A stretch of DNA of 64,000 nucleotides, from contig NZ_JASTLB010000001.1 of NCBI RefSeq assembly GCF_030499535.1, positions 744,001 to 808,000 of the forward strand. Reading direction: 5' to 3'. The position numbers and the translations under genes are program-made. The notes under the pieces were generated by a model. That model was not told the origin of the DNA and made no database searches. It saw only the letters and a program-made list of their open reading frames with translations. The DNA comes from Streptomyces sp. TG1A-8 (GTDB taxonomy: Bacteria > Actinomycetota > Actinomycetes > Streptomycetales > Streptomycetaceae). Positions 8,314-20,489 of the stretch are shown here, in pieces (the stretch's first letter is position 1; each line of letters starts with the position of its first letter).

Positions 8314-8916
8314 TCAGCCCCGGCCGCCGCTCAGGTCGCGCCACTCGGGACCGATCCGCTTCCACTCCTCGTCCCACTCGGCCAGCCGCCGGCGCACGAG
8401 CCGGGTGCGCACCAGCCACCCGGCGCCCCAGACCGCCGTACCGGTGACCTGGGCGGCGAGGGCGCCGCCGAGCACCATCTGCGCGCCCGCCTCGGACGCC
8501 GAGGCGGGCGGCGGCACCACCCGGTCCGCGCGGTCCGCCCACATCGTGACCGTGGCGCCCGCCGCGGTGCCCGGGAGGACCTTCACCCGGTCCGTGCGCA
8601 CGGAGCCGTCCCGCGCCGTCCAGCGGACGGTGGCCCACACCCGGGCGTCGTCGTACCCGCCGCCGGCGGCCGGGGTCTTCGCCGCGTCGTCGGTGAGGAC
8701 TGCGGAGACGGGGTGCGCCTGGGCCCGTCGTGCGGAGAGCGCCGTGTCGGTGCAGTACGCCACCGCCGCGCCCGCGGCGGTGCCGGCCAGCAGGGCGAGG
8801 ATCCAGGTGGCGAGGACGATCCAGGCCTCCACGATGTCGCTGTGCCGTCTGAGCGGATTGCGCCGCCAGCGCCACAGCCGTACCCGTGGGACCGCCGTGG
8901 GAGGTGTCCGTGTCAT
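8314..8916 (-). CDS. Rv1733c-family membrane protein
   Basis: The 200-residue protein has a basic N-terminus ([15 protein letters not shown]), a first membrane helix about residues 31-52, a roughly 85-residue exported domain ([13 protein letters not shown] to [12 protein letters not shown]), and a second helix about residues 140-165. It ends in a charged cytoplasmic tail with [13 protein letters not shown]. This architecture is the Streptomyces group related to Mycobacterium tuberculosis Rv1733c, whose function is unknown. ATG 8916 has a strong GGAAGGAGG site 7 bases upstream. It converges with the BlaB-like gene 15 bases away. The 332 bases upstream to katG hold its promoter region and the katG terminator, with no other gene seen. 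Confidence 0.8.
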
Positions 8917-12234: not shown

Positions 12235-12969
12235 CTACCCCTTCACCTCGTCCGTCCTCTTCCCGGCCGAAGCCAGGGTTCCGCCCAGGAGGGCGGCTCC
12301 CAGTGGCCACGAACGCATGTGCACGGGGAGGGTCACGCACTGGTCCCCGACGCGCAGGAGCAGGCCCGCGTCCACCAGGTCCCGCGCGGCGGCGGCGTGC
12401 CGCGGGGTCCGGGCCGCCTCGGCCCACGCGCAGCCCTCCAGGGCCTGGAGGAAGACGTCCGTCATGGCGGGATCGTCCACGACGACCTGTCCGCGGGAGT
12501 CGGGCCGCTGGTCGACGACGGACAGGAACGCCGGTCCCTTGCGGAAGTACAACAGGCCGAAGGTGCCGGCGGACCGCCACTCGCCGACGGGTGCACCGCC
12601 CTCCCCCCGCACCGTGAGGGCGCCGGGGGCGGGAAGGTGGTCGAGCCGCGGGACCAGGTCCAGCTGGTCCGCGCCCAGGATCAGGGACCAGGTGACCCGG
12701 GCGCCGATCGAGGAGCACTCGCGGATCAGCGCGATGAGGCGCACGAGCATGTGGTCGGGGAGAGCCGGGAAGTCGGCGGGCTCCGCCAGCCGCACCCCCG
12801 CGACCGGCACCCGGGACAGGAGCGCCGTCAGCTCGGCGGCCGTGGGGAGCCCGGCCCCGTCGGCCCCCAGGGTCAGCGTCGCGGCCCCGGGCCGGCCGCC
12901 GGCCGGCGCGCGGCCCCGGGCCGCGGCCCGGGTGCGCAGTTCCCCGATGTCCATCAGCGCGTTCGTCAT
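12235..12969 (-). CDS. DUF5825 family protein, RiPP radical-SAM partner
   Basis: The 244-residue soluble protein has no recognisable catalytic motif. An N-terminal segment (LTAAELTALLSRVPVAGVRL region) resembles a small alpha/beta unit. The C-terminal half includes WRSAGTFGLLYFRKGPAFL and AARDLVDAGLLLRVGD, the latter like a winged-helix recognition segment. Its ATG overlaps the radical SAM stop codon as ATGA, so the two are translationally coupled. DUF5825 proteins are recurrent neighbours of this radical SAM family in Streptomyces. A role in substrate recognition or delivery, like RiPP recognition elements, is an inference. From 12001 to 12234 downstream there is no gene. Confidence 0.75.
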   Translation of the reverse strand: MTNALMDIGELRTRAAARGRAPAGGRPGAATLTLGADGAGLPTAAELTALLSRVPVAGVRLAEPADFPALPDHMLVRLIALIRECSSIGARVTWSLILGADQLDLVPRLDHLPAPGALTVRGEGGAPVGEWRSAGTFGLLYFRKGPAFLSVVDQRPDSRGQVVVDDPAMTDVFLQALEGCAWAEAARTPRHAAAARDLVDAGLLLRVGDQCVTLPVHMRSWPLGAALLGGTLASAGKRTDEVKG

Positions 12970-14831
12970 GACGCGGCGACCTCCTTGCCGTTGACCAGTT
13001 TCCGGCGGTACGGGTCGACCCCCAGGGCGACGCTCACGTACCGCCCCTCGTCCTCGAAGGCCAGGCCGCGATCGACGAAGTAGCGCAGCGTCTGCTCCAG
13101 TTCCGCCTCGCCGACGACGTGCCCGCTCTCGGCGAGCCGCCGGCGGATGCCCTCGCGCGCGGCGCACTGGAACATGCCGAGGTACACGTTGCTCCGGACG
13201 TCGTCCAGTTCGATGACCTCCTGCGGCCAGCTGGCGCGGCGGTCCTCGACGACCACCCGGCCCCGGTCGTCGGTCCAGTAGGTGAGGGTGCTGTGCCGGT
13301 AGGCCCTGGCCCACTCCTCGACCCCCTGCTTCAGCTCGTCCTCCAGGGGGCCCGCGATCCCCTGGATGCTGGTGTCGAAGAGGTAGACGAGGTCGTACAG
13401 TTCGTCGCGCGGGACCTTGTAGATGAAGTCGTATATCTCGGCCGGTCGCCGGAACATGAACCCCTGGCCGGGGTCCTCGAAGTAGGGGCTGAACCGCTCC
13501 AGCGCTATGCGCCACGCTCCCGTCGGCGGCTGCAGGTGCTCCAGGGTGGCGAACTTCCCGAGCAGCGGGCGGTAGTCGTCCTCGGTCTCGCCGGGGAAGC
13601 CGTAGAGGATGTTCCACGTCACGTTGAGGCCGAGGTCCTCCCCGTCGCGCAGCATCCGCACGTTGTGCGCGCCGCTGACGCCCTTGTCCATGAGGCGCAG
13701 CACGTGGCTGCTCAGGCTTTCGATGCCGGGCTGGACGTAGAGGACGTTCGCCTCCTTCAGGGTGCTCAGCTGCTCCCGCGTCATGTTGGACTTGATCTCG
13801 TAGTGGATCCTCAGGTCGCAGCCGAGGGCGGCCATCGCCGGCATGGCCGTGTTGAGGTACTTCATGTCGAGGATGTTGTCCACCATGATCAGGTCGAGGA
13901 CCCGGTACCGCTCGGCGAGGTCCCTGACTTCTTCGGCGATGCGTTCGGGGGCCTTGCTCCGGAAGTCGATGTTCGACCCGTTCAGGCCGCAGAACGTGCA
14001 CTGGTGGACCTCCCCCCACCAGCAGCCGCGGGAGGTCTCCAGCACCATCATCGGGCGGATGTGCTGCCGGAAGACCGACTTCTCGAGCGCCTCGAAGTAG
14101 CTGTCGTAATCGGGCGGGGGGACCGCGGCGAACGGCAGCGCCCCCTGGGCGGGCGGATTCACCACCGTCCGCCCCTCGTCCCGCCAGCTGAGGCCCGGGA
14201 TGCCGGCGAAGTCCCGGCCTTCGGCGATGCGCCTCAGCAGCGCGGGCAGTGACCGCTCGCCCTCACCGCTCACCACGAGGTCGACCTGCTCGAAGTTGCG
14301 GTGCAGGGCGGGACCCTGCGCTCCGTCGCAGTTGCTGCCGCCGAGCACCGTGACGATGCCCGGCACGAGGCGCTTCAGTTCCCCGGCCAGCGCGAGGCAC
14401 GGCACGTTCTGCATGAAGGTGCTCGTGAACCCGACGACGTCGGGCGGGTCGAGGGCGATCTCGGCCGCCAGGGCCCGGATGAACTGCCGGGCGTGCTTCT
14501 GCATCGCGACGGGCACGAGCGGGTCCACGTCCCGCTGCCGCAGGAACTCGGAGAACTCGTCGGCCCGGTAGGTGTCCAGGTCGTACAGCGCCGGGGTGAA
14601 CACCCAGTCGCCCACGCCGTGGAACACCTGGACCGCGACGTGCTGGTAATCCGCCGACGTGATGGCGCCGTCGCTCTCGCGCACCAGGTGCTCGGCCCAG
14701 CGGATGTTGGCGTACAGCTCCTCGACGGCCCAGCCGGTGGCGTTCCTGCGAACGCACTGCCCGAGTATGCCCAGTGCGCTGGACGGTGTGTCGAGCCCTT
14801 GCCACGGCATGCTGATCAACAGGATTCTCAT
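12966..14831 (-). CDS. B12-binding radical SAM enzyme, RiPP-maturation family (C-methyltransferase type)
   Basis: The 621-residue enzyme starts with MRILLISMPWQ, the beta-strand opening a cobalamin-binding Rossmann domain (residues about 1-220). The radical SAM core carries the cluster motif in SRGCWWGEVHQCTFCGLNG, spaced C-x7-C-x2-C (about residues 268-279), a spacing characteristic of the bacteriocin/RiPP-maturation radical SAM group. Further core segments are LIMVDNILDMKYL and YVQPGIESLS. Relatives transfer methyl groups to unactivated carbons of peptides. The C-terminal 200 residues are helical and may bind substrate. ATG 14831 overlaps the end of a short upstream frame as ATGA. The gene heads the rSAM-DUF5825 pair and lies on the same strand as the P450 and JAB genes. 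Confidence 0.88.
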   Translation of the reverse strand: MRILLISMPWQGLDTPSSALGILGQCVRRNATGWAVEELYANIRWAEHLVRESDGAITSADYQHVAVQVFHGVGDWVFTPALYDLDTYRADEFSEFLRQRDVDPLVPVAMQKHARQFIRALAAEIALDPPDVVGFTSTFMQNVPCLALAGELKRLVPGIVTVLGGSNCDGAQGPALHRNFEQVDLVVSGEGERSLPALLRRIAEGRDFAGIPGLSWRDEGRTVVNPPAQGALPFAAVPPPDYDSYFEALEKSVFRQHIRPMMVLETSRGCWWGEVHQCTFCGLNGSNIDFRSKAPERIAEEVRDLAERYRVLDLIMVDNILDMKYLNTAMPAMAALGCDLRIHYEIKSNMTREQLSTLKEANVLYVQPGIESLSSHVLRLMDKGVSGAHNVRMLRDGEDLGLNVTWNILYGFPGETEDDYRPLLGKFATLEHLQPPTGAWRIALERFSPYFEDPGQGFMFRRPAEIYDFIYKVPRDELYDLVYLFDTSIQGIAGPLEDELKQGVEEWARAYRHSTLTYWTDDRGRVVVEDRRASWPQEVIELDDVRSNVYLGMFQCAAREGIRRRLAESGHVVGEAELEQTLRYFVDRGLAFEDEGRYVSVALGVDPYRRKLVNGKEVAAS

Positions 14832-14962
14832 ACGGTGCCTGCCCTAGGACGTCGGTGCGCGAGCGCGGAAGGGGTTCCGCCGGCACGGATCGGAAGGTGC
14901 GGGTGCGAAGGACATCGGGGAAGCCCGGGTCGGCGGGTTCCGTTGCTGACGGGGGCCCTCAC
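14828..14962 (-). CDS. possible small peptide upstream of the radical SAM (candidate precursor)
   Basis: A 44-codon frame starting at GTG 14962 ends exactly in an ATGA overlap with the radical SAM start, the coupling expected for a RiPP precursor. The peptide is Pro/Arg/His-rich with one Cys (RRPGLPRCPSHPHLP). The ribosome site (GGAACAC) is weak, and nothing resembles a known leader. Overlapping it in another frame is a 23-codon ATG frame (14844-14915; MSFAPAPSDPC start, TAG stop). Neither is convincing. The remaining bases 14963-15309 are GC-rich, have no start with a ribosome site and show no gene-like composition. Confidence 0.2.
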   Translation of the reverse strand: MRAPVSNGTRRPGLPRCPSHPHLPIRAGGTPSALAHRRPRAGTV

Positions 14963-15309
14963 GTGTTCCGGGCCGGCCGGCGGCGGCCGGCCCGGGGCGC
15001 CGCGCCGGTGGCGCCGCGCGTCCGGTGCCGGTGCCCGCGGCCCGTCGCCGCCTGCCGTGACCGGCGCCCGCGGCCCGCCGGGCCGGGGCGGGCCGGAGGC
15101 GGACGAAGCCGGCCCGGGAGGGCGGGACGGGCGGGCCGCAGACCTTGGCGAAGGGACCGCGGGGCCACGGTGCCGCGGACCTCCCCGCGCCGGTGGGGAC
15201 GCGTGGTCCGGTGCCGGTGATCCGCCGCCGTGGGGGGCGCCGGGCCCGCCCGCGGGCCTCCGGGCGAGCCCGGCGGTGGCGGTCCGGCGCGGGCCCCGGT
15301 CCCCGGGCT

Positions 15310-16263
15310 TCACCCGTGCGTCGCCGGCCGCGCCGCGCGCGTGGCGAGCAATTCGTACAGCATCTCGTGGACCGGCGCGGTCAGGCCCGCCCGGCCGGCG
15401 AGGCGGACCACGGCCCCCGTCCACGCGTCGAGTTCGGACGGCCTCCCCTCCAGGATGTCCCGCTGCAGCGAGGTGGTCACGTCCGGGTGCTGCCGGTCCA
15501 TCAGTCCGGTCGCCGTGTCCACGGCGTCCTCGGGCAGCGCGATCCCGAGCGCGGTGCCGGTCTCGTGGATTTCCCGCATGCCGGCGAGCAGCATCCGCCG
15601 GGTGCCGGGGCGCGACCGCAGTTCGCCGACGGTCGCCCCGGCGGTGGCGGCCCCCAGGCTGCCGATCGGCACCAGCAGCAGGAACTTCGCCCACAGCGCG
15701 GCCCAGATGTCGCTCGGCTCCGCCGCTGTCAGCGAGGCGTCGCGACACACCTCGCGCAGCCGCTTCACCCGGTCGGACACACCGCCGTCCCACTCGGCGA
15801 AGCCCAGCACCGCGGGGTCGCCCACGTGCCTCACCTCGCCGGGACCGGCCAGCGTGGCGACGATCCTGACCGTGCCGGGGAGCACCCGGCCGCGGCCGAC
15901 GCGGGCCGCGACCTGCCCGGGGGCCTCCACGCCGTTCTGCACGGTGAGCACGGCGGTGTTCCCGCCGACCATCGGGCCCAGCGCGTCGACGGCCGCGGGC
16001 AGCTGCCACGTCTTGACGCAGAGCAGTACGTAGTCGACCTCGCCGATGTCCCGCGGGTCGTCCGACACCCGCGGGCTGCGCACGGACCAGTCCCCCGCCG
16101 CGTGCCTGACGCGCAGTCCGGTCCGTCCGAGCGCGGCGAGGTTCTCCCCGCGGGCCAGGAACCGCACGTCGTGCCCGGCGGCGGCGAGCCGGCCGCCGAG
16201 GTAGCCGCCGACTCCGCCGGCCCCCACCACGGCGATGCTCGGGCCGCCCGTTTCCCCCGTCAT
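15310..16263 (-). CDS. ketopantoate reductase-like oxidoreductase (ApbA/PanE family)
   Basis: The 317-residue protein opens with IAVVGAGGVGGYLGGRLA, the NADP-binding glycine motif. It keeps the family's LLCVKTWQ strand and TVQNGVEAP, where Asn binds substrate. The central lysine appears in LWAKFLLLVPIG, and the C-terminal helical domain (SLQRDILEGRPSELD) matches PanE. PanE reduces ketopantoate with NADPH in coenzyme A synthesis, but paralogues in biosynthetic clusters reduce other 2-oxo acids or imines. Its place between the radical SAM and the sulfur-carrier/P450 gene suggests a tailoring role. GAGGAG lies 9 bases before ATG 16263. A housekeeping panE elsewhere would be expected. Confidence 0.85.
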   Translation of the reverse strand: MTGETGGPSIAVVGAGGVGGYLGGRLAAAGHDVRFLARGENLAALGRTGLRVRHAAGDWSVRSPRVSDDPRDIGEVDYVLLCVKTWQLPAAVDALGPMVGGNTAVLTVQNGVEAPGQVAARVGRGRVLPGTVRIVATLAGPGEVRHVGDPAVLGFAEWDGGVSDRVKRLREVCRDASLTAAEPSDIWAALWAKFLLLVPIGSLGAATAGATVGELRSRPGTRRMLLAGMREIHETGTALGIALPEDAVDTATGLMDRQHPDVTTSLQRDILEGRPSELDAWTGAVVRLAGRAGLTAPVHEMLYELLATRAARPATHG

Positions 16264-16330
16264 CCCTCCGCACTCCTCACCGGCTCCGGCTCGCGCCGCG
16301 CGTCCCGCACTACGCCCTTCCGCGCACCCG

Positions 16331-17899
16331 TCATCGCGGCAACCGCCCCCGCAGCCGCAGGGGGAGGGCCTCCAGGCCCCGGCTGAGCGAGCTGTCGGCG
16401 ATCCAGGAGACCTCCTCGGGAGCCACCGCGAGCTCGAAGTGCGGCAGCCGGCGCAGCAACGTGCCGAACGCGATCTCGCCCTGCAGCCGCGCCAGCGGAG
16501 CGCCGATGCAGAAGTGGGCGCCGTGGCCGAAGGACAGGTGGCGGTTCGGCGACCGCGTGATGTCGAAGCGCTCCGGGTCGTCGTACACCTCGGGGTCGTG
16601 CCCCGCGGCGGACAGCGACAGGTGGACGAAGCTGCCCTTGGGTATGTCCACCCCGCCGAGCCGCATGTCCTGCGCCGCGATCCGCAGCGAGGCCCAGGCC
16701 GCCGACCCCTCGTAGCGCAGGATCTCCTCGATCGCCGAGGGAATCAGTTCGGGCTCGTCGCGCAGCAGGGCGAGTTGCCCGGGGTGGCGCAGCAGCAGCT
16801 CCGTCCCGTTGCCCACCATGTTGGCGACCGTCTTGTGCCCGGCGATGATCAGCAGGAGGATCGTGGAGAGCAGCTCGTCCTCGCTGAGGTCGTCCGCGTC
16901 CCTGGCTCTGATGAGTTCGCTCAGCAGGTCGTTGCGCAGTGCGTCGCGGCGCCGGGCGACCAGGGCGGTGAAGTAGTCCCGGAACTCCCCGCTCGCCCTC
17001 TTCAGGTCCGCCTCGGGGTGCTGCAGCGGATCCTGGCTGAGGACGTAGCTCCACTCCTGGAACAGCGGCCGGTCCTCGACCGGTATCCCCAGGTACTCGC
17101 AGATGGTGATGAGCGGCAGCGGCAGGGCGAAGGCGCTCAGCAGGTCGATCTCGCCCGACTCCGGGAAGGCGTCGATGAGGTCGTCGACGATGTCCTGGAT
17201 GCGCGGGCGGAGCCGGGCGACGGTCGCGGGCAGGAAGGCCCGGCTGATGGGCTTCTTCAGCCGGGTGTGCTTGGGCGGGTCGGCGAAGCCCAGGTTGCCG
17301 ATCACGAGGAGGCTGTTCTGCGCGGCCTTGTCCCGGTAGGGGTCGGGCAGGTTCTCGACCTGCTTGGTCAGCCGCGAGTCGCCGAACGCCTGCTCGACCA
17401 CCTTGTTCCCGAGGACCGCGTACGCCCGGGCGCCGGGGGGGATGTCGATCCGGTGGACCGGGCACCGTGACCTGAGTTCCGTGGTCGCCGCGTGCGGAGA
17501 CGGCCCGGGGTGGGTGAAGAATTCCGAGGGGAGAATGTCCGGCATCGTGACTCCTGGGCCCGCGTCATTCCACTGCCGCCCGCTGCCGCCCGCTACCGCC
17601 GGCACTATCCACACGACGTCTTCGTTCGCCACTTTCGTTTCGAGGCCGTCGAGGTCCCTGATGTCGTTGTCGTTCCGGTAGACGTTGACGTAGCGCTTCA
17701 CGGACCCTTCCGGGTCCATGAGCCGTTCGAGTATGCCGGGACAACATCGGTCGAGGGCGTCGAGCGCCTCCCGAATGGTGTATCCTTCAACGGAAACTTG
17801 CCGCTGACCGCCGGTCAGCATGTGGAAGGCTGCGGGGAGTTTGATGGTCACCGAGGACATCGGAAGACTTCTACTGACATCCTGCGAGACGTCGGGCAT
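16331..17899 (-). CDS. sulfur-carrier (CysO/MoaD-like) protein fused in frame to cytochrome P450
   Basis: One 522-codon frame encodes two proteins' worth of sequence. Residues about 14-105 are a beta-grasp sulfur carrier of CysO/MoaD type (VNVYRNDNDIRDLDGLE, then WIVPAVAGG, the di-glycine end where the thiocarboxylate forms). Thirteen residues later MPDILPSEFF starts a complete P450. It has I-helix LLLIIAGHKTVANMV (AGxxT-like), K-helix EEILR (E-x-x-R) and haem loop FGHGAHFCIG with the Cys ligand. AGGAG lies 6-7 bases before the internal ATG (17545), so the P450 may also start by itself. ATG 17899 has AAGGAG 7 bases upstream. A JAB-domain gene lies 53 bases upstream. Fusion, cleavage after GG, or both are possible. 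Confidence 0.85.
   Translation of the reverse strand: MPDVSQDVSRSLPMSSVTIKLPAAFHMLTGGQRQVSVEGYTIREALDALDRCCPGILERLMDPEGSVKRYVNVYRNDNDIRDLDGLETKVANEDVVWIVPAVAGGSGRQWNDAGPGVTMPDILPSEFFTHPGPSPHAATTELRSRCPVHRIDIPPGARAYAVLGNKVVEQAFGDSRLTKQVENLPDPYRDKAAQNSLLVIGNLGFADPPKHTRLKKPISRAFLPATVARLRPRIQDIVDDLIDAFPESGEIDLLSAFALPLPLITICEYLGIPVEDRPLFQEWSYVLSQDPLQHPEADLKRASGEFRDYFTALVARRRDALRNDLLSELIRARDADDLSEDELLSTILLLIIAGHKTVANMVGNGTELLLRHPGQLALLRDEPELIPSAIEEILRYEGSAAWASLRIAAQDMRLGGVDIPKGSFVHLSLSAAGHDPEVYDDPERFDITRSPNRHLSFGHGAHFCIGAPLARLQGEIAFGTLLRRLPHFELAVAPEEVSWIADSSLSRGLEALPLRLRGRLPR
17574..17593 (+). repeat. tandem 10-bp repeat at the sulfur-carrier/P450 junction
   Basis: TGCCGCCCGC occurs twice in tandem (17574-17583, 17584-17593), followed by a third copy with two mismatches. 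On the coding strand it lies directly after the GG codons. Because 10 is not a multiple of 3, adding one unit would end the carrier at a TGA 12 residues past GG. Removing one would shift out of the P450 frame. The present count gives the fusion. Confidence 0.8.
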
Positions 17900-17952
17900 G
17901 TCTCATCTCCTTGGATAGTCCCTCTTGTTTCGCCCTGCGGGAGCCGCACTCG

Positions 17953-18660
17953 TCAGTGGGGCGGGAATTCGACGTCGAACTCGTCGCGGATCGCCGGCGG
18001 AATGCGTATGTCGAGGCTTTCGCACCGCTCCGCGCCGGGCCGCCAGCCCGCCACCCGGTGCGCCGTGCCGCCGCGTCCCCCACGGATGTACCAGATCACG
18101 TTGACCGGCCAGCACGACTGGCGGAAGAGGTACTCGTCCATCCTGGTCGGGTTCTCGCTGAGCTCCTGGTAGCGCTCGTGCGGCGGGCCGATCTCGTGCC
18201 AGTTCGGATGCGAGTGCACGGATCCCATCAGCTCCCGGCCCCGGACGGACTGCTTCTTGATCGCCTGGAGCACACCCTTCCCGTCGCACCAGAACCCCCG
18301 TCCCGAGTTCCTGTACACATCGCCGAACCGGGGGGCGATCGTCCCTTCGAACTCGGCCATGACGCTCTCGTCACTGTCGCGCACGTTCGTCACGAATTCG
18401 ATGCCGCTGATCGTTATCTCGACGCCGTCCGACTCTCCGAACAGAAGGGCCGAGGCGCGCGGCAGGTGGGTGGGGACTCCGTCGCCGTTACGGCTGTCCA
18501 GGCATTTCTGGTACTCCTGGACCGCATGGTCGATGAAACGCCTGGCGGGTTCCGGCTCCCATCGGGCGATTGCCGGAAGGCCGCCGAACGGCGAAGCGCG
18601 GTCCGCCTCGCCGGCCGCACCGCGGTCCGCAGCAGGAGTCACACGTTGAGCATTCCTCAT
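17953..18660 (-). CDS. JAB/MPN-domain (JAMM-like) protein
   Basis: The 235-residue protein has an N-terminal helical part (to about residue 55), then the JAB fold: ASALLFGES strand, ISGIEFVTNV, and MGSVHSHPNWHE with the HxH zinc ligands (about residue 150). A later D follows an insertion (SENPTRMDEY) instead of the usual S-x2-D seven residues on. The first-helix Glu of classic JAMM peptidases aligns with Ala. Mec+ of Mycobacterium cleaves CysO-cysteine and QbsD trims the quinolobactin carrier, so the adjacent carrier fusion is the likely partner. ATG 18660 is chosen because GGGGGAGG lies 11 bases upstream; ATG 18681 is an in-frame alternative. Confidence 0.75.
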   Translation of the reverse strand: MRNAQRVTPAADRGAAGEADRASPFGGLPAIARWEPEPARRFIDHAVQEYQKCLDSRNGDGVPTHLPRASALLFGESDGVEITISGIEFVTNVRDSDESVMAEFEGTIAPRFGDVYRNSGRGFWCDGKGVLQAIKKQSVRGRELMGSVHSHPNWHEIGPPHERYQELSENPTRMDEYLFRQSCWPVNVIWYIRGGRGGTAHRVAGWRPGAERCESLDIRIPPAIRDEFDVEFPPH

Positions 18661-18800
18661 GCCTGCCTGTACCTCCCCCATTGATTTCCTGTTGAAACCT
18701 TGCGTGGAACAGACGGGCGGGACTTCTCCGCACTTCGCGGAACACGGCTCCCTCTTGGCCGTTCATTTGGCCGGATGCCGCAGCAGTCTCCGCTTCGCAT
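18657..18800 (-). CDS. possible 47-residue peptide before the JAB gene
   Basis: From ATG 18800 a 47-codon frame ends as ATGA over the JAB start at 18660. The peptide starts MRSGDCCGIRPNE and ends NQWGRYRQA, so it carries two Cys and a C-terminal W-x-x-Y. Against it: no ribosome site, and many codons rare in Streptomyces (AGA, AAT, CAA, TCA). The lower GC of 18650-18900 fits a promoter region equally well. It is listed only because the cluster needs a substrate peptide. Confidence 0.15.
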   Translation of the reverse strand: MRSGDCCGIRPNERPRGSRVPRSAEKSRPSVPRKVSTGNQWGRYRQA

Positions 18801-19275
18801 CACGTCGGCGAGGAGGGCCGATCAAGCCAACCTGCAAGAAGGGGGTACTCGGAAACCCTGGAGCGTTTCGGCTTTGTCGAAATACCAGTGACTTAGGCCC
18901 CTGTTGTCCGCGGCCGGCGCGGCGGGCGCCGGCCGCGGTGGCCGGCCGGGGGCGTGCCGGGGCCGCGACGCGGTGGTCCGCGTGGCCGGGGGCCGGCCGG
19001 CGGTCTCGCGTCCGGCGGCGCCCGGGGCCGGCCCGCGCCGGCCGGCGTACCGGCTGCCGGGCCGTGGCCGCCGGTGCGCCGCGGCGCTGTGGACGGCGGC
19101 CGAAAAGTCCCGGGTGGGCGGGACGGCGGCAGCGGGAGCAGGGGACCGCGGCGCGCCCCCGCGCGCCGCGTGCGGATTCCGGCCCGTCCGCGTGCACGCC
19201 CGTGCACGCCCCTGCGGGACGGGGGTGGGGCACCGTCACGCCACGCGGGGGCGGCGCCCCATCGGGCCGGGACCG
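18801..19275. other. intergenic region, no gene seen
   Basis: From 18801 to about 18900 the sequence is less GC-rich and probably holds the promoter of the JAB-P450 cluster, reading leftward. From 18900 to 19275 it is very GC-rich and low in complexity. No frame on either strand has a ribosome site or family resemblance. Confidence 0.5.
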
Positions 19276-20388
19276 TCAGTACCGGCTGTTCATCGCGGCA
19301 CGCACCTCGGCGAGCGTGGCGTCGGCCACCGCCCGTGCGCGCTCGTTGCCCTCGCGCAGCGTCCGGCGGAGGAAGGCGCGGTCCTGCGCGTACTCGGTGC
19401 GGCGCGTCCGGATCGGTGCCAGGTACTCGTTGACCGACTCGGTCACGGTCTTCTTCAGCGCGGCGGCTCCCGCGGCGCCGATGTCCTCGGCCACCTGCTG
19501 CGGGGTCCGGCCCTGGCAGAGGGCTGCCAGCAGCAGGAGGGAGGAGACCTCGGGACGAGTGGCCGGATCGTAGGTGATGTGCCGCTCGGAGTCGGTCTTG
19601 GCGCCCTTGAGCAGCCGGGCGGTCTCGTCGGCGCCGGCCGCCAGGGCGATGGCGTTGCCCCGGCTCTTGCTCATCTTCGTGCCGTCCGTGCCGAGCAGGA
19701 GCGGTGCGCTCGACAGCAGGGCGTCGGGCTGGGGGAAGACGGCAGTGCCGTTCCCGTAGCGGTCGTTGAAGCGGCGGGCGACGGTCCGGGTGACTTCCAG
19801 GTGGGGAAGCTGGTCCTGGCCGACCGGGACGAGGTTGGCCTTGCAGAAGAGGATGTCGGCGGCCTGGTGAACGGGATAGGTGAACATCAGGCCGCTGACG
19901 GCGGACTGGCGGGAGTGGGCGATCTCGTCCTTGACCGTGGGGTTGCGGTTGAGTTCGGCGACGGAGACGAGGCTGAGGAAGGGCAGCATCAGCTGGTTGA
20001 GCGCGGGGACGGCGCTGTGCGTGAAGACCGTGCTGCGCGCCGGGTCCACGCCGATGGCGAGGTAGTCAAGCACCAGTTCCTCGACGTGCCCGGTCAGGTT
20101 GTCCGCCACGTCCCGGTCGGTCAGGACCTGGTAGTCGGCGATGACCACGAACGTCTCCACCCCGAGGTCCTGCAGGCGTACCCGGTTGTGCAGGGTCCCG
20201 AAGTAGTGCCCCAGGTGCAGGCGGCCGGTGGGGCGGTCGCCCGTCAGGATGCGGAACCGTCCGGGATCCTCGAGGATCTGCTCCTCCAGCACCGCGCTGC
20301 GGGCCTGTGCGGTGGACGTCCCGAGCGTGTCGGCGGAAGGACCTGGGGCGGAGGCGTCGGGGTCCACGGTCTGGGGGGTGGTGTTCAC
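19276..20388 (-). CDS. trpS: tryptophanyl-tRNA synthetase, auxiliary type
   Basis: The 370-residue class I synthetase has the HIGH-like GRLHLGHYFG (about residue 57), the substrate pocket VADYQ/SAVSGLMFTYPVHQAADIL, QDQLPHLE and the KMSKS loop (GTKMSKSRGN). It charges tRNA-Trp. The sequence is of the type represented by the second, indolmycin-resistant synthetase of Streptomyces (TrpS1, SCO3334 in S. coelicolor). The upstream attenuator supports the auxiliary role. GTG 20388 follows GGAG by 6 bases; upstream in-frame codons overlap the attenuator and are not coding. The gene ends at a Tyr codon and TGA near 19276. Confidence 0.93.
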   Translation of the reverse strand: MNTTPQTVDPDASAPGPSADTLGTSTAQARSAVLEEQILEDPGRFRILTGDRPTGRLHLGHYFGTLHNRVRLQDLGVETFVVIADYQVLTDRDVADNLTGHVEELVLDYLAIGVDPARSTVFTHSAVPALNQLMLPFLSLVSVAELNRNPTVKDEIAHSRQSAVSGLMFTYPVHQAADILFCKANLVPVGQDQLPHLEVTRTVARRFNDRYGNGTAVFPQPDALLSSAPLLLGTDGTKMSKSRGNAIALAAGADETARLLKGAKTDSERHITYDPATRPEVSSLLLLAALCQGRTPQQVAEDIGAAGAAALKKTVTESVNEYLAPIRTRRTEYAQDRAFLRRTLREGNERARAVADATLAEVRAAMNSRY

Positions 20389-20452
20389 AGGGTCTCCTGG
20401 TGCGTCGGTCTCGCCGCCAGGATGGCAGAGCCCCGGTCCAGGGGGACGCGAA

Positions 20453-20476
20453 CGGGCCGTCCATCCGAACGGCCCG
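20453..20476 (-). terminator. attenuator terminator (3:4 hairpin) of trpS
   Basis: CGGGCCGT and ACGGCCCG form a perfect 8-bp stem with an 8-base loop, between the leader peptide and trpS. It is followed on the minus strand by TTCG. Its upstream arm (CGGGCCGTTC, in RNA sense) can instead pair with GAGCGGCC of the preceding hairpin, eight pairs with one G-U, giving mutually exclusive structures. Confidence 0.75.
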
Positions 20477-20489
20477 GTCATGCGTGAGA

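What the first reader, a model, noticed from the sequence alone, without database searches (positions are those of the whole stretch)
16331..18660. Sulfur-carrier protein fused to a P450 and paired with a JAB-domain gene in a radical-SAM cluster
A CysO/MoaD-like carrier ending in AVAGG continues in frame, through 13 residues, into a complete P450; a JAB/MPN gene lies 53 bp upstream. In known systems (CysO-Mec+, QbsE-QbsD) a JAMM protease cuts at the GG of the carrier to expose or recycle it. Here cleavage would release both an active carrier and the P450, as in ubiquitin-fusion genes. Together with a B12 radical SAM, DUF5825 and a ketopantoate-reductase homologue, this looks like an undescribed pathway that adds sulfur (or uses a thiocarboxylate) during peptide modification. 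The fusion and gene order are seen; the chemistry is inferred.
Basis: partly seen in the sequence, partly recalled or inferred. Interest (0 to 1): 0.92.

Follow-up and report, generated by a model that had tools for sequence, protein, structure and literature searches.

The report
Chuangxinmycin cluster with carrier-P450 fusion
This is a gene cluster of the known type that makes the sulfur antibiotic chuangxinmycin, and the new detail is that the small sulfur-carrier protein and the ring-closing P450 enzyme, usually separate, are joined in one reading frame here, so a protease probably has to cut them apart.

Summary
In detail: a ThiS/MoaD-like carrier ending AVAGG runs in frame, through 13 residues, into a complete P450 (16331-17899, minus strand), 53 bp after a JAMM gene. 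The pathway is not undescribed and nothing found points to peptide modification. The genes belong to a chuangxinmycin-type (cxn) cluster: best PDB hit is CxnD (6kfw, 728 bits); carrier and JAMM are 77% and 69% identical to the Actinoplanes tsinanensis proteins; a second TrpRS fits self-resistance. What differs is the fusion. Of 60 separate clade carriers 55 bear residues after GG, against 11 of the next 60, so trimming behind GG looks general and the fusion is its extreme. On a tree of 73 P450s fusion changed at least four times. In Labedaea the P450 has lost its own start; in the window AGGAG-ATG survives inside the fusion. Most likely the chain is cut after GG by the JAMM protein; that step is inferred. 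The aminotransferase CxnB is absent from 5 of 10 loci, this one included. New variant of a known kind, moderate interest.

The parts
16331..17899 (-). Carrier-P450 fusion ORF, 522 aa (CxnE + CxnD in one frame)
17585..17899 (-). Ubiquitin-like sulfur carrier part (CxnE orthologue) with N-terminal leader
   Evidence: ThiS 40.5 bits; 77% identical over 88 residues to A. tsinanensis carrier P0244
17585..17590 (-). Gly-Gly codons; proposed cut lies just after them
   Evidence: cut is inferred
17546..17584 (-). 13-residue linker SGRQWNDAGPGVT; 39 nt from GG to ATG against 29 nt in 5 of 7 unfused loci (20 in L007, 31 in L037)
17551..17555 (-). AGGAG, probable ribosome-binding site of the P450, kept inside the fusion
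   Evidence: SD-like site within 2 nt of the same place in 6 of 7 unfused loci, not in L008
16331..17545 (-). P450 part (CxnD orthologue), 404 aa from internal ATG 17545
   Evidence: PDB 6kfw CxnD 727.9 bits, residues 120-522
17953..18681 (-). JAMM/MPN protein (CxnF orthologue, deubiquitinase-like sulfurtransferase); start may lie at 18660 or 18642
   Evidence: 69% identical over 232 residues to A. tsinanensis JAMM metalloprotease P0148; JAMM fold
15310..16263 (-). Ketopantoate-reductase-like protein (taken as CxnC by family and place; thione reduction)
   Evidence: PF02558/PF08546; present in 10 of 10 loci
14832..15309 (-). Gap where five related loci carry the aminotransferase CxnB; too short for it here
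12966..14831 (-). B12 radical SAM C-methyltransferase (taken as CxnA)
   Evidence: TIGR03975 574.7 bits; present in 10 of 10 loci, split or frame-shifted in L038 and L009
12235..12969 (-). DUF5825 protein (taken as CxnA1, partner of CxnA, by place)
   Evidence: PF19142 79.6 bits; its ATG overlaps the stop of the radical SAM gene
19276..20481 (-). Second tryptophanyl-tRNA synthetase, probable self-resistance gene
   Evidence: TIGR00233 236.6 bits; the genome's other copy is at C1:2833224 and 36% identical to it

Best explanation
The region is a chuangxinmycin-type (or norchuangxinmycin-type) cluster. Tryptophan is transaminated, probably by an aminotransferase encoded elsewhere; an E1 encoded elsewhere activates the carrier's GG end to a thiocarboxylate; the JAMM protein, with the carrier, transfers sulfur to the keto acid; the ketopantoate-reductase-like enzyme reduces the thione; the P450 closes the C-S ring; the B12 radical SAM with its DUF5825 partner adds the methyl; the second TrpRS protects the producer. 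In this strain carrier and P450 lie in one open frame, so a ribosome that starts at the carrier makes a carrier-P450 chain. The P450 may also be started on its own from its retained AGGAG-ATG. Shown: genes, frame, conserved caps, recurrence of fusion. Inferred: cleavage, the enzyme that does it, product. The confidence below is for the cluster identity and the need of a cut; for the JAMM as the cutter it is about 0.65.
For: CxnD is the top PDB hit by far, 727.9 bits against 304.1 for the next. JAMM 69% and carrier 77% identical to the A. tsinanensis proteins. The published plasmid insert is named CxnA1ABCDEF (PMC12087186 passages); if the letters follow the map, that is the window's order minus B. 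TrpRS, JAMM, carrier, P450, reductase, radical SAM and DUF5825 are together in 10 of 10 distinct loci, the window included (the loci were found by their JAMM; L036 repeats L005; L011, 41% JAMM on a 7.7-kb contig, was left out). Caps: 55 of 60 separate carriers of the clade have residues after GG, 51 of them Ser first, 5 end at GG; of the next 60 carriers listed 49 end at that GG; the A. tsinanensis carrier's tail is SEAARAEESR. Fusions: 5 fused rows of 73 need 4 gains or losses, and starred branches force 4. Labedaea L010 reads GGSDVLP with no start codon in the five codons before the conserved motif and no SD-like site in 40 nt, so its P450 is most likely made only as the fusion. A paper on thioplatensimycin states that capped carriers typically need a protease such as QbsD (PMC6006322, passages). 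The model of the fusion gives residues 101-140 pLDDT under 50, in keeping with a loose linker, but the whole model is poor (66.1).
Against: No cleavage data. The residue that lines up with the catalytic Glu (a recalled motif) of Mec+-type JAMM proteins is Arg, Ser or Asn in this family (weak alignment, Probab 1.4), so peptide cleavage by this JAMM is not assured. Five of 60 clade carriers end at GG and need no trimming. CxnB is absent; the best genome relatives are 42 and 44% identical and far away. Gene order differs in 4 of 10 loci (L004, L008, L009, L010: radical SAM and DUF5825 lie before the JAMM). The A. tsinanensis sequences of CxnC, CxnA and CxnA1 were not compared. The product was not seen.
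Confidence: 0.85

Rival explanations
1. The fusion is a recent neutral slip (it can hold together with the main reading): an insertion of about 10 nt moved the carrier frame into the P450 frame; the P450 is still made mainly from its own AGGAG-ATG, and the fused chain is tolerated because caps are trimmed anyway.
For: The window is the only fused row in a starred clade of 7; three of its six sisters (P0007, P0008, P0018) share a contig length with a separate carrier (circumstantial); own start retained; an open 13-codon junction is not improbable.
Against: Fusion changed at least four times on the tree, and in Labedaea the separate start is gone; P0004 reads GGSEVLP and is probably alike, but its DNA was not seen.
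Confidence: 0.45
2. The fusion works uncut: the carrier domain acts as a tether or docking domain on the P450 and a second, free carrier of the genome supplies sulfur.
For: Four more ThiS-family carriers are encoded in the genome.
Against: The fused carriers keep the conserved carrier sequence up to PA(V/I)AGG; JAMM and its clade carrier go together in 10 of 10 loci.
Confidence: 0.1
3. An undescribed sulfur pathway acting on a peptide.
For: The radical SAM matches the RiPP C-methyltransferase model TIGR03975 (574.7 bits); small ORFs were not screened for a precursor peptide.
Against: P450, carrier and JAMM are close to the A. tsinanensis or CxnD sequences, the other genes fit the cxn roles by family, and TrpRS fits an indole product.
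Confidence: 0.03
4. Assembly error: the missing stop is an artefact.
For: The seven unfused loci read here have a stop between the two genes.
Against: The window junction differs by about 10 nt, not by one base of a run; the assembly has 4 contigs and 100% completeness; fused junctions occur in other genomes too.
Confidence: 0.02

Closest known systems
Chuangxinmycin cluster cxn/cxm of Actinoplanes tsinanensis
   Same: JAMM, capped carrier and CxnD-type P450 by sequence; reductase, B12 radical SAM plus partner and TrpRS by family and place
   Different: Carrier and P450 fused in one frame; no CxnB aminotransferase in the cluster
Capped carriers trimmed by a JAMM protease: QbsE-QbsD (recalled) and PtmS2 with PtmS1 (PMC6006322 passages)
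   Same: Residues after GG and a JAMM gene beside the carrier gene
CysO-Mec+ pair of actinobacteria (recalled); the genome has such a pair at C1:4486276-4487225, carrier ending GGMA
   Same: JAMM plus carrier
   Different: Sulfur goes to cysteine (recalled); that JAMM is Prok-JAB proper (105.9 bits) and keeps the Glu
Ubiquitin-ribosomal protein fusions of eukaryotes (recalled)
   Same: Ubiquitin-like domain made as N-terminal fusion that must be cut after GG
   Different: Partner is a ribosomal protein; cut there by cysteine deubiquitinases (recalled)

Membership tests
Chuangxinmycin-type cluster | CxnD-type P450 | tested here: met
   6kfw CxnD 727.9 bits, 403 residues
Chuangxinmycin-type cluster | CxnF JAMM and CxnE carrier | tested here: met
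   69% and 77% identity to A. tsinanensis proteins
Chuangxinmycin-type cluster | CxnC reductase, CxnA radical SAM, CxnA1 partner | tested here: inconclusive
   right families and places and kept in 10 of 10 loci, but the A. tsinanensis sequences were not at hand to compare
Chuangxinmycin-type cluster | TrpRS gene in the cluster | tested here: met
   second TrpRS, in 10 of 10 loci; resistance itself not tested
Chuangxinmycin-type cluster | CxnB aminotransferase in the cluster | tested here: not met
   no hit in the 64 kb window at 1e-4; found in 5 of 10 loci; best in genome 42-44%. Since half of the otherwise complete loci lack it, it is not taken as excluding
Chuangxinmycin-type cluster | Makes chuangxinmycin | not testable with these tools
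   needs metabolite analysis
JAMM/MPN+ metalloprotease | JAMM fold | tested here: met
JAMM/MPN+ metalloprotease | HxH ... D metal ligands | tested here: met
   H143, H145 and D169 of P0121 invariant in 20 of 20; motif recalled, metal not tested
JAMM/MPN+ metalloprotease | Catalytic Glu | tested here: inconclusive
   aligned position reads Arg/Ser/Asn, low-confidence alignment; E97 and E99 are invariant in 20 of 20
RiPP (modified peptide) cluster | Precursor peptide gene | not tested
   only ORFs of 90 aa and more were listed

The most novel reading that the evidence does not exclude
A bacterial counterpart of ubiquitin-fusion genes: the carrier and a later enzyme of an antibiotic pathway are made as one chain and parted by a dedicated JAMM protein that is also the pathway's sulfurtransferase and that lacks the usual catalytic Glu; the arrangement came up repeatedly (four changes on the tree, most simply four gains) and is obligatory in Labedaea.
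Probability: 0.45. Interest if true: 0.5.

Novelty: new variant of a known kind. Interest (0 to 1): 0.38.

Why it matters
The fusion turns a question that is hard to see in the usual cluster into a plain one: whether the chuangxinmycin JAMM protein, described as a sulfurtransferase, also has to cut a peptide bond behind GG. A fused strain either cuts or makes no active carrier from this gene, and cut and uncut forms differ by a whole P450. It also shows a natural route by which capped carriers become fusions.

Tried and rejected
An undescribed peptide-modifying pathway was dropped once the P450 matched CxnD and the TrpRS was found. A Pfam label for the JAMM failed at 1e-3, so the fold was tested instead. 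Comparison of the JAMM profile with 25 Mec+-type proteins by hhalign gave no confident alignment (a first try, caught one sequence only because my pattern was too strict), so the missing Glu is a lead, not a result. The PDB profile search for the JAMM found one weak hit (E 0.59), the single-sequence search none. The fusion model is poor and was not searched for folds. Paper searches whose listings I read for a carrier-P450 fusion showed none by title or term in the held library; of the key papers, doi 10.1002/anie.202107745 and PMC5925218 are not held and 10.1002/anie.202015814 was not asked for, so a fusion may be in print there. That Zhang 2021 used a GG-ended carrier form is recalled, not read.

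Rows dropped before counts: the tree used the window and 72 of P0001-P0075 (three under 395 aa left out; P0082, partial, lay outside the range). Labels 'unfused' there rest on gene calls in the source; changes may be gains or losses; 46 of 500 shuffles were as low. The protein list shows the best 120 of 3681. Of 174 carrier hits 120 were listed; the split into 60 clade and 60 other carriers follows the E-value gap between 1.2e-29 and 3.2e-18. Three of the 11 'other' carriers with a tail read AGG after the first GG, so they too end in GG.

Full report
What is there. On the minus strand of 12235-20481 lie, in order of transcription, a tryptophanyl-tRNA synthetase (19276-20481), a JAMM-fold protein (17953-18681), a 522-aa ORF made of a ThiS/MoaD-like carrier and a P450 (16331-17899), a ketopantoate-reductase-like protein (15310-16263), a B12 radical SAM protein (12966-14831) and a DUF5825 protein (12235-12969). 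The carrier ends PAVAGG; after 13 residues Met119 opens the P450; there is no stop between them.

What it is. The P450 part hits PDB 6kfw, CxnD, with 727.9 bits over 403 residues; the next solved relative has 304.1. The JAMM is 69% identical over 232 residues to the JAMM metalloprotease of Actinoplanes tsinanensis, and the carrier 77% over 88 residues to that strain's carrier. A. tsinanensis makes chuangxinmycin. PMC12087186 (passages read) gives the pathway: CxnB transaminates tryptophan, the deubiquitinase-like sulfurtransferase CxnF and carrier CxnE make the thione, CxnC reduces it, CxnD closes the ring, CxnA with CxnA1 methylates, and a trpRS gene served to find the cluster; its plasmid insert is named CxnA1ABCDEF. 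If the letters follow the map, that is the window's order without B. I did not have the A. tsinanensis sequences of CxnC, CxnA or CxnA1, so these are assigned by family and place.

Related loci. The genome scan with the JAMM alignment returned 8 loci; L011 (41% JAMM, 7.7-kb contig) was left out. All seven genes lie together in 10 of 10, JAMM by selection. In L004, L008, L009 and L010 the radical SAM and DUF5825 genes lie before the JAMM, and these four, with the window, are the five of ten without CxnB in the held stretch. The window's genome has CxnB relatives of 42 and 44% elsewhere. The second TrpRS is unlike the genome's other one (36%). The cluster is rare: with the JAMM profile 14 of 394 genomes of the family match at 1e-20, 2 of them above 400 bits; 5 of 394 in the class sample, 2 of them above 350 bits; 2 of 392 in the genus sample at 1e-70; 2 of 35 in the family of G477, one above 350 bits. 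The samples overlap, and those include the window's own genome.

The junction. In L005, L006 and L008 the stop TGA overlaps the P450's ATG by the ATGA rule. From GG to ATG there are 29 nt in 5 of the 7 (20 in L007, 31 in L037) and 39 in the window, which puts both in one frame; AGGAGTCACGATG reads as in L004 and L005. In Frankia (L038) the frame is also one, with AGGAG and a GTG kept. In Labedaea (L010) the sequence runs GGSDVLP with no start codon in the five codons before the conserved motif and no SD-like site: a fusion that is hard to bypass.

Caps and fusions across the family. A protein search with the carrier gave 60 separate clade members; 55 have residues after GG (1 to 19), 51 beginning with Ser, and 5 stop at GG. 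Among the next 60 carriers 49 stop at that GG and 11 do not, three of which end in a second GG. Fused proteins seen are P0002-P0005 and P0082 (partial) plus the window; two others join the JAMM to the carrier, P0167 (ends at GG) and P0198 (capped). On a maximum-likelihood tree of 73 P450s the five fused rows need four changes, gains or losses, and starred branches force four; with most rows unfused, four gains is the simplest reading, subject to the gene calls. Given the GC-rich DNA, 13 codons stay open with about 82% chance in a given frame, so such fusions are easy to make; that they last suggests that the cell can cut them or does not mind.

Verdict. The gene fusion is real and recurs, the pathway is known, and the proposed peptide modification is not supported. 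The point of interest is that fused strains make JAMM cleavage behind GG directly testable.

Noticed in passing
L040:9071-10340, L041:8675-10340, L042:9630-11206, L044, L051: Distant JAMM relatives (39-41% identical) sit in a tight pair with an aldo/keto reductase (Pfam tested in L041 only) in Streptomycetaceae, with no carrier hit in the fetched stretch: a possible unexplored JAMM pathway.
   Followed up: partly
L039:8182-13082, L050:6083-10937: Another JAMM setting (38 and 46% identical): P450, DUF6875, short-chain dehydrogenase, JAMM and berberine-type FAD oxidase (DUF6875 and dehydrogenase Pfam tested in L039 only), with an aminotransferase 51% identical to CxnB nearby; in L039 a carrier hit lies about 5 kb away.
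   Followed up: partly
P0167 and P0198 (unnamed sources): JAMM and carrier fused in one protein, one ending exactly at GG, one capped.
   Followed up: no
L038:14228-17997: In the Frankia locus the radical SAM match is split by about 1.9 kb, so that strain may make only norchuangxinmycin.
   Followed up: no
L009:7347-9208: The radical SAM match in this metagenome-assembled genome changes frame at 8798; frameshift or assembly error.
   Followed up: no
L033 (G477) and L035 (G931): The JAMM match is reported with one TGA inside; whether it lies in the gene or beyond its end was not looked into.
   Followed up: no
G000:C1:4486276-4487225 (L014, L060): The genome's CysO-type carrier next to a Mec+-type JAMM ends GGMA, so it too is capped.
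   Followed up: no
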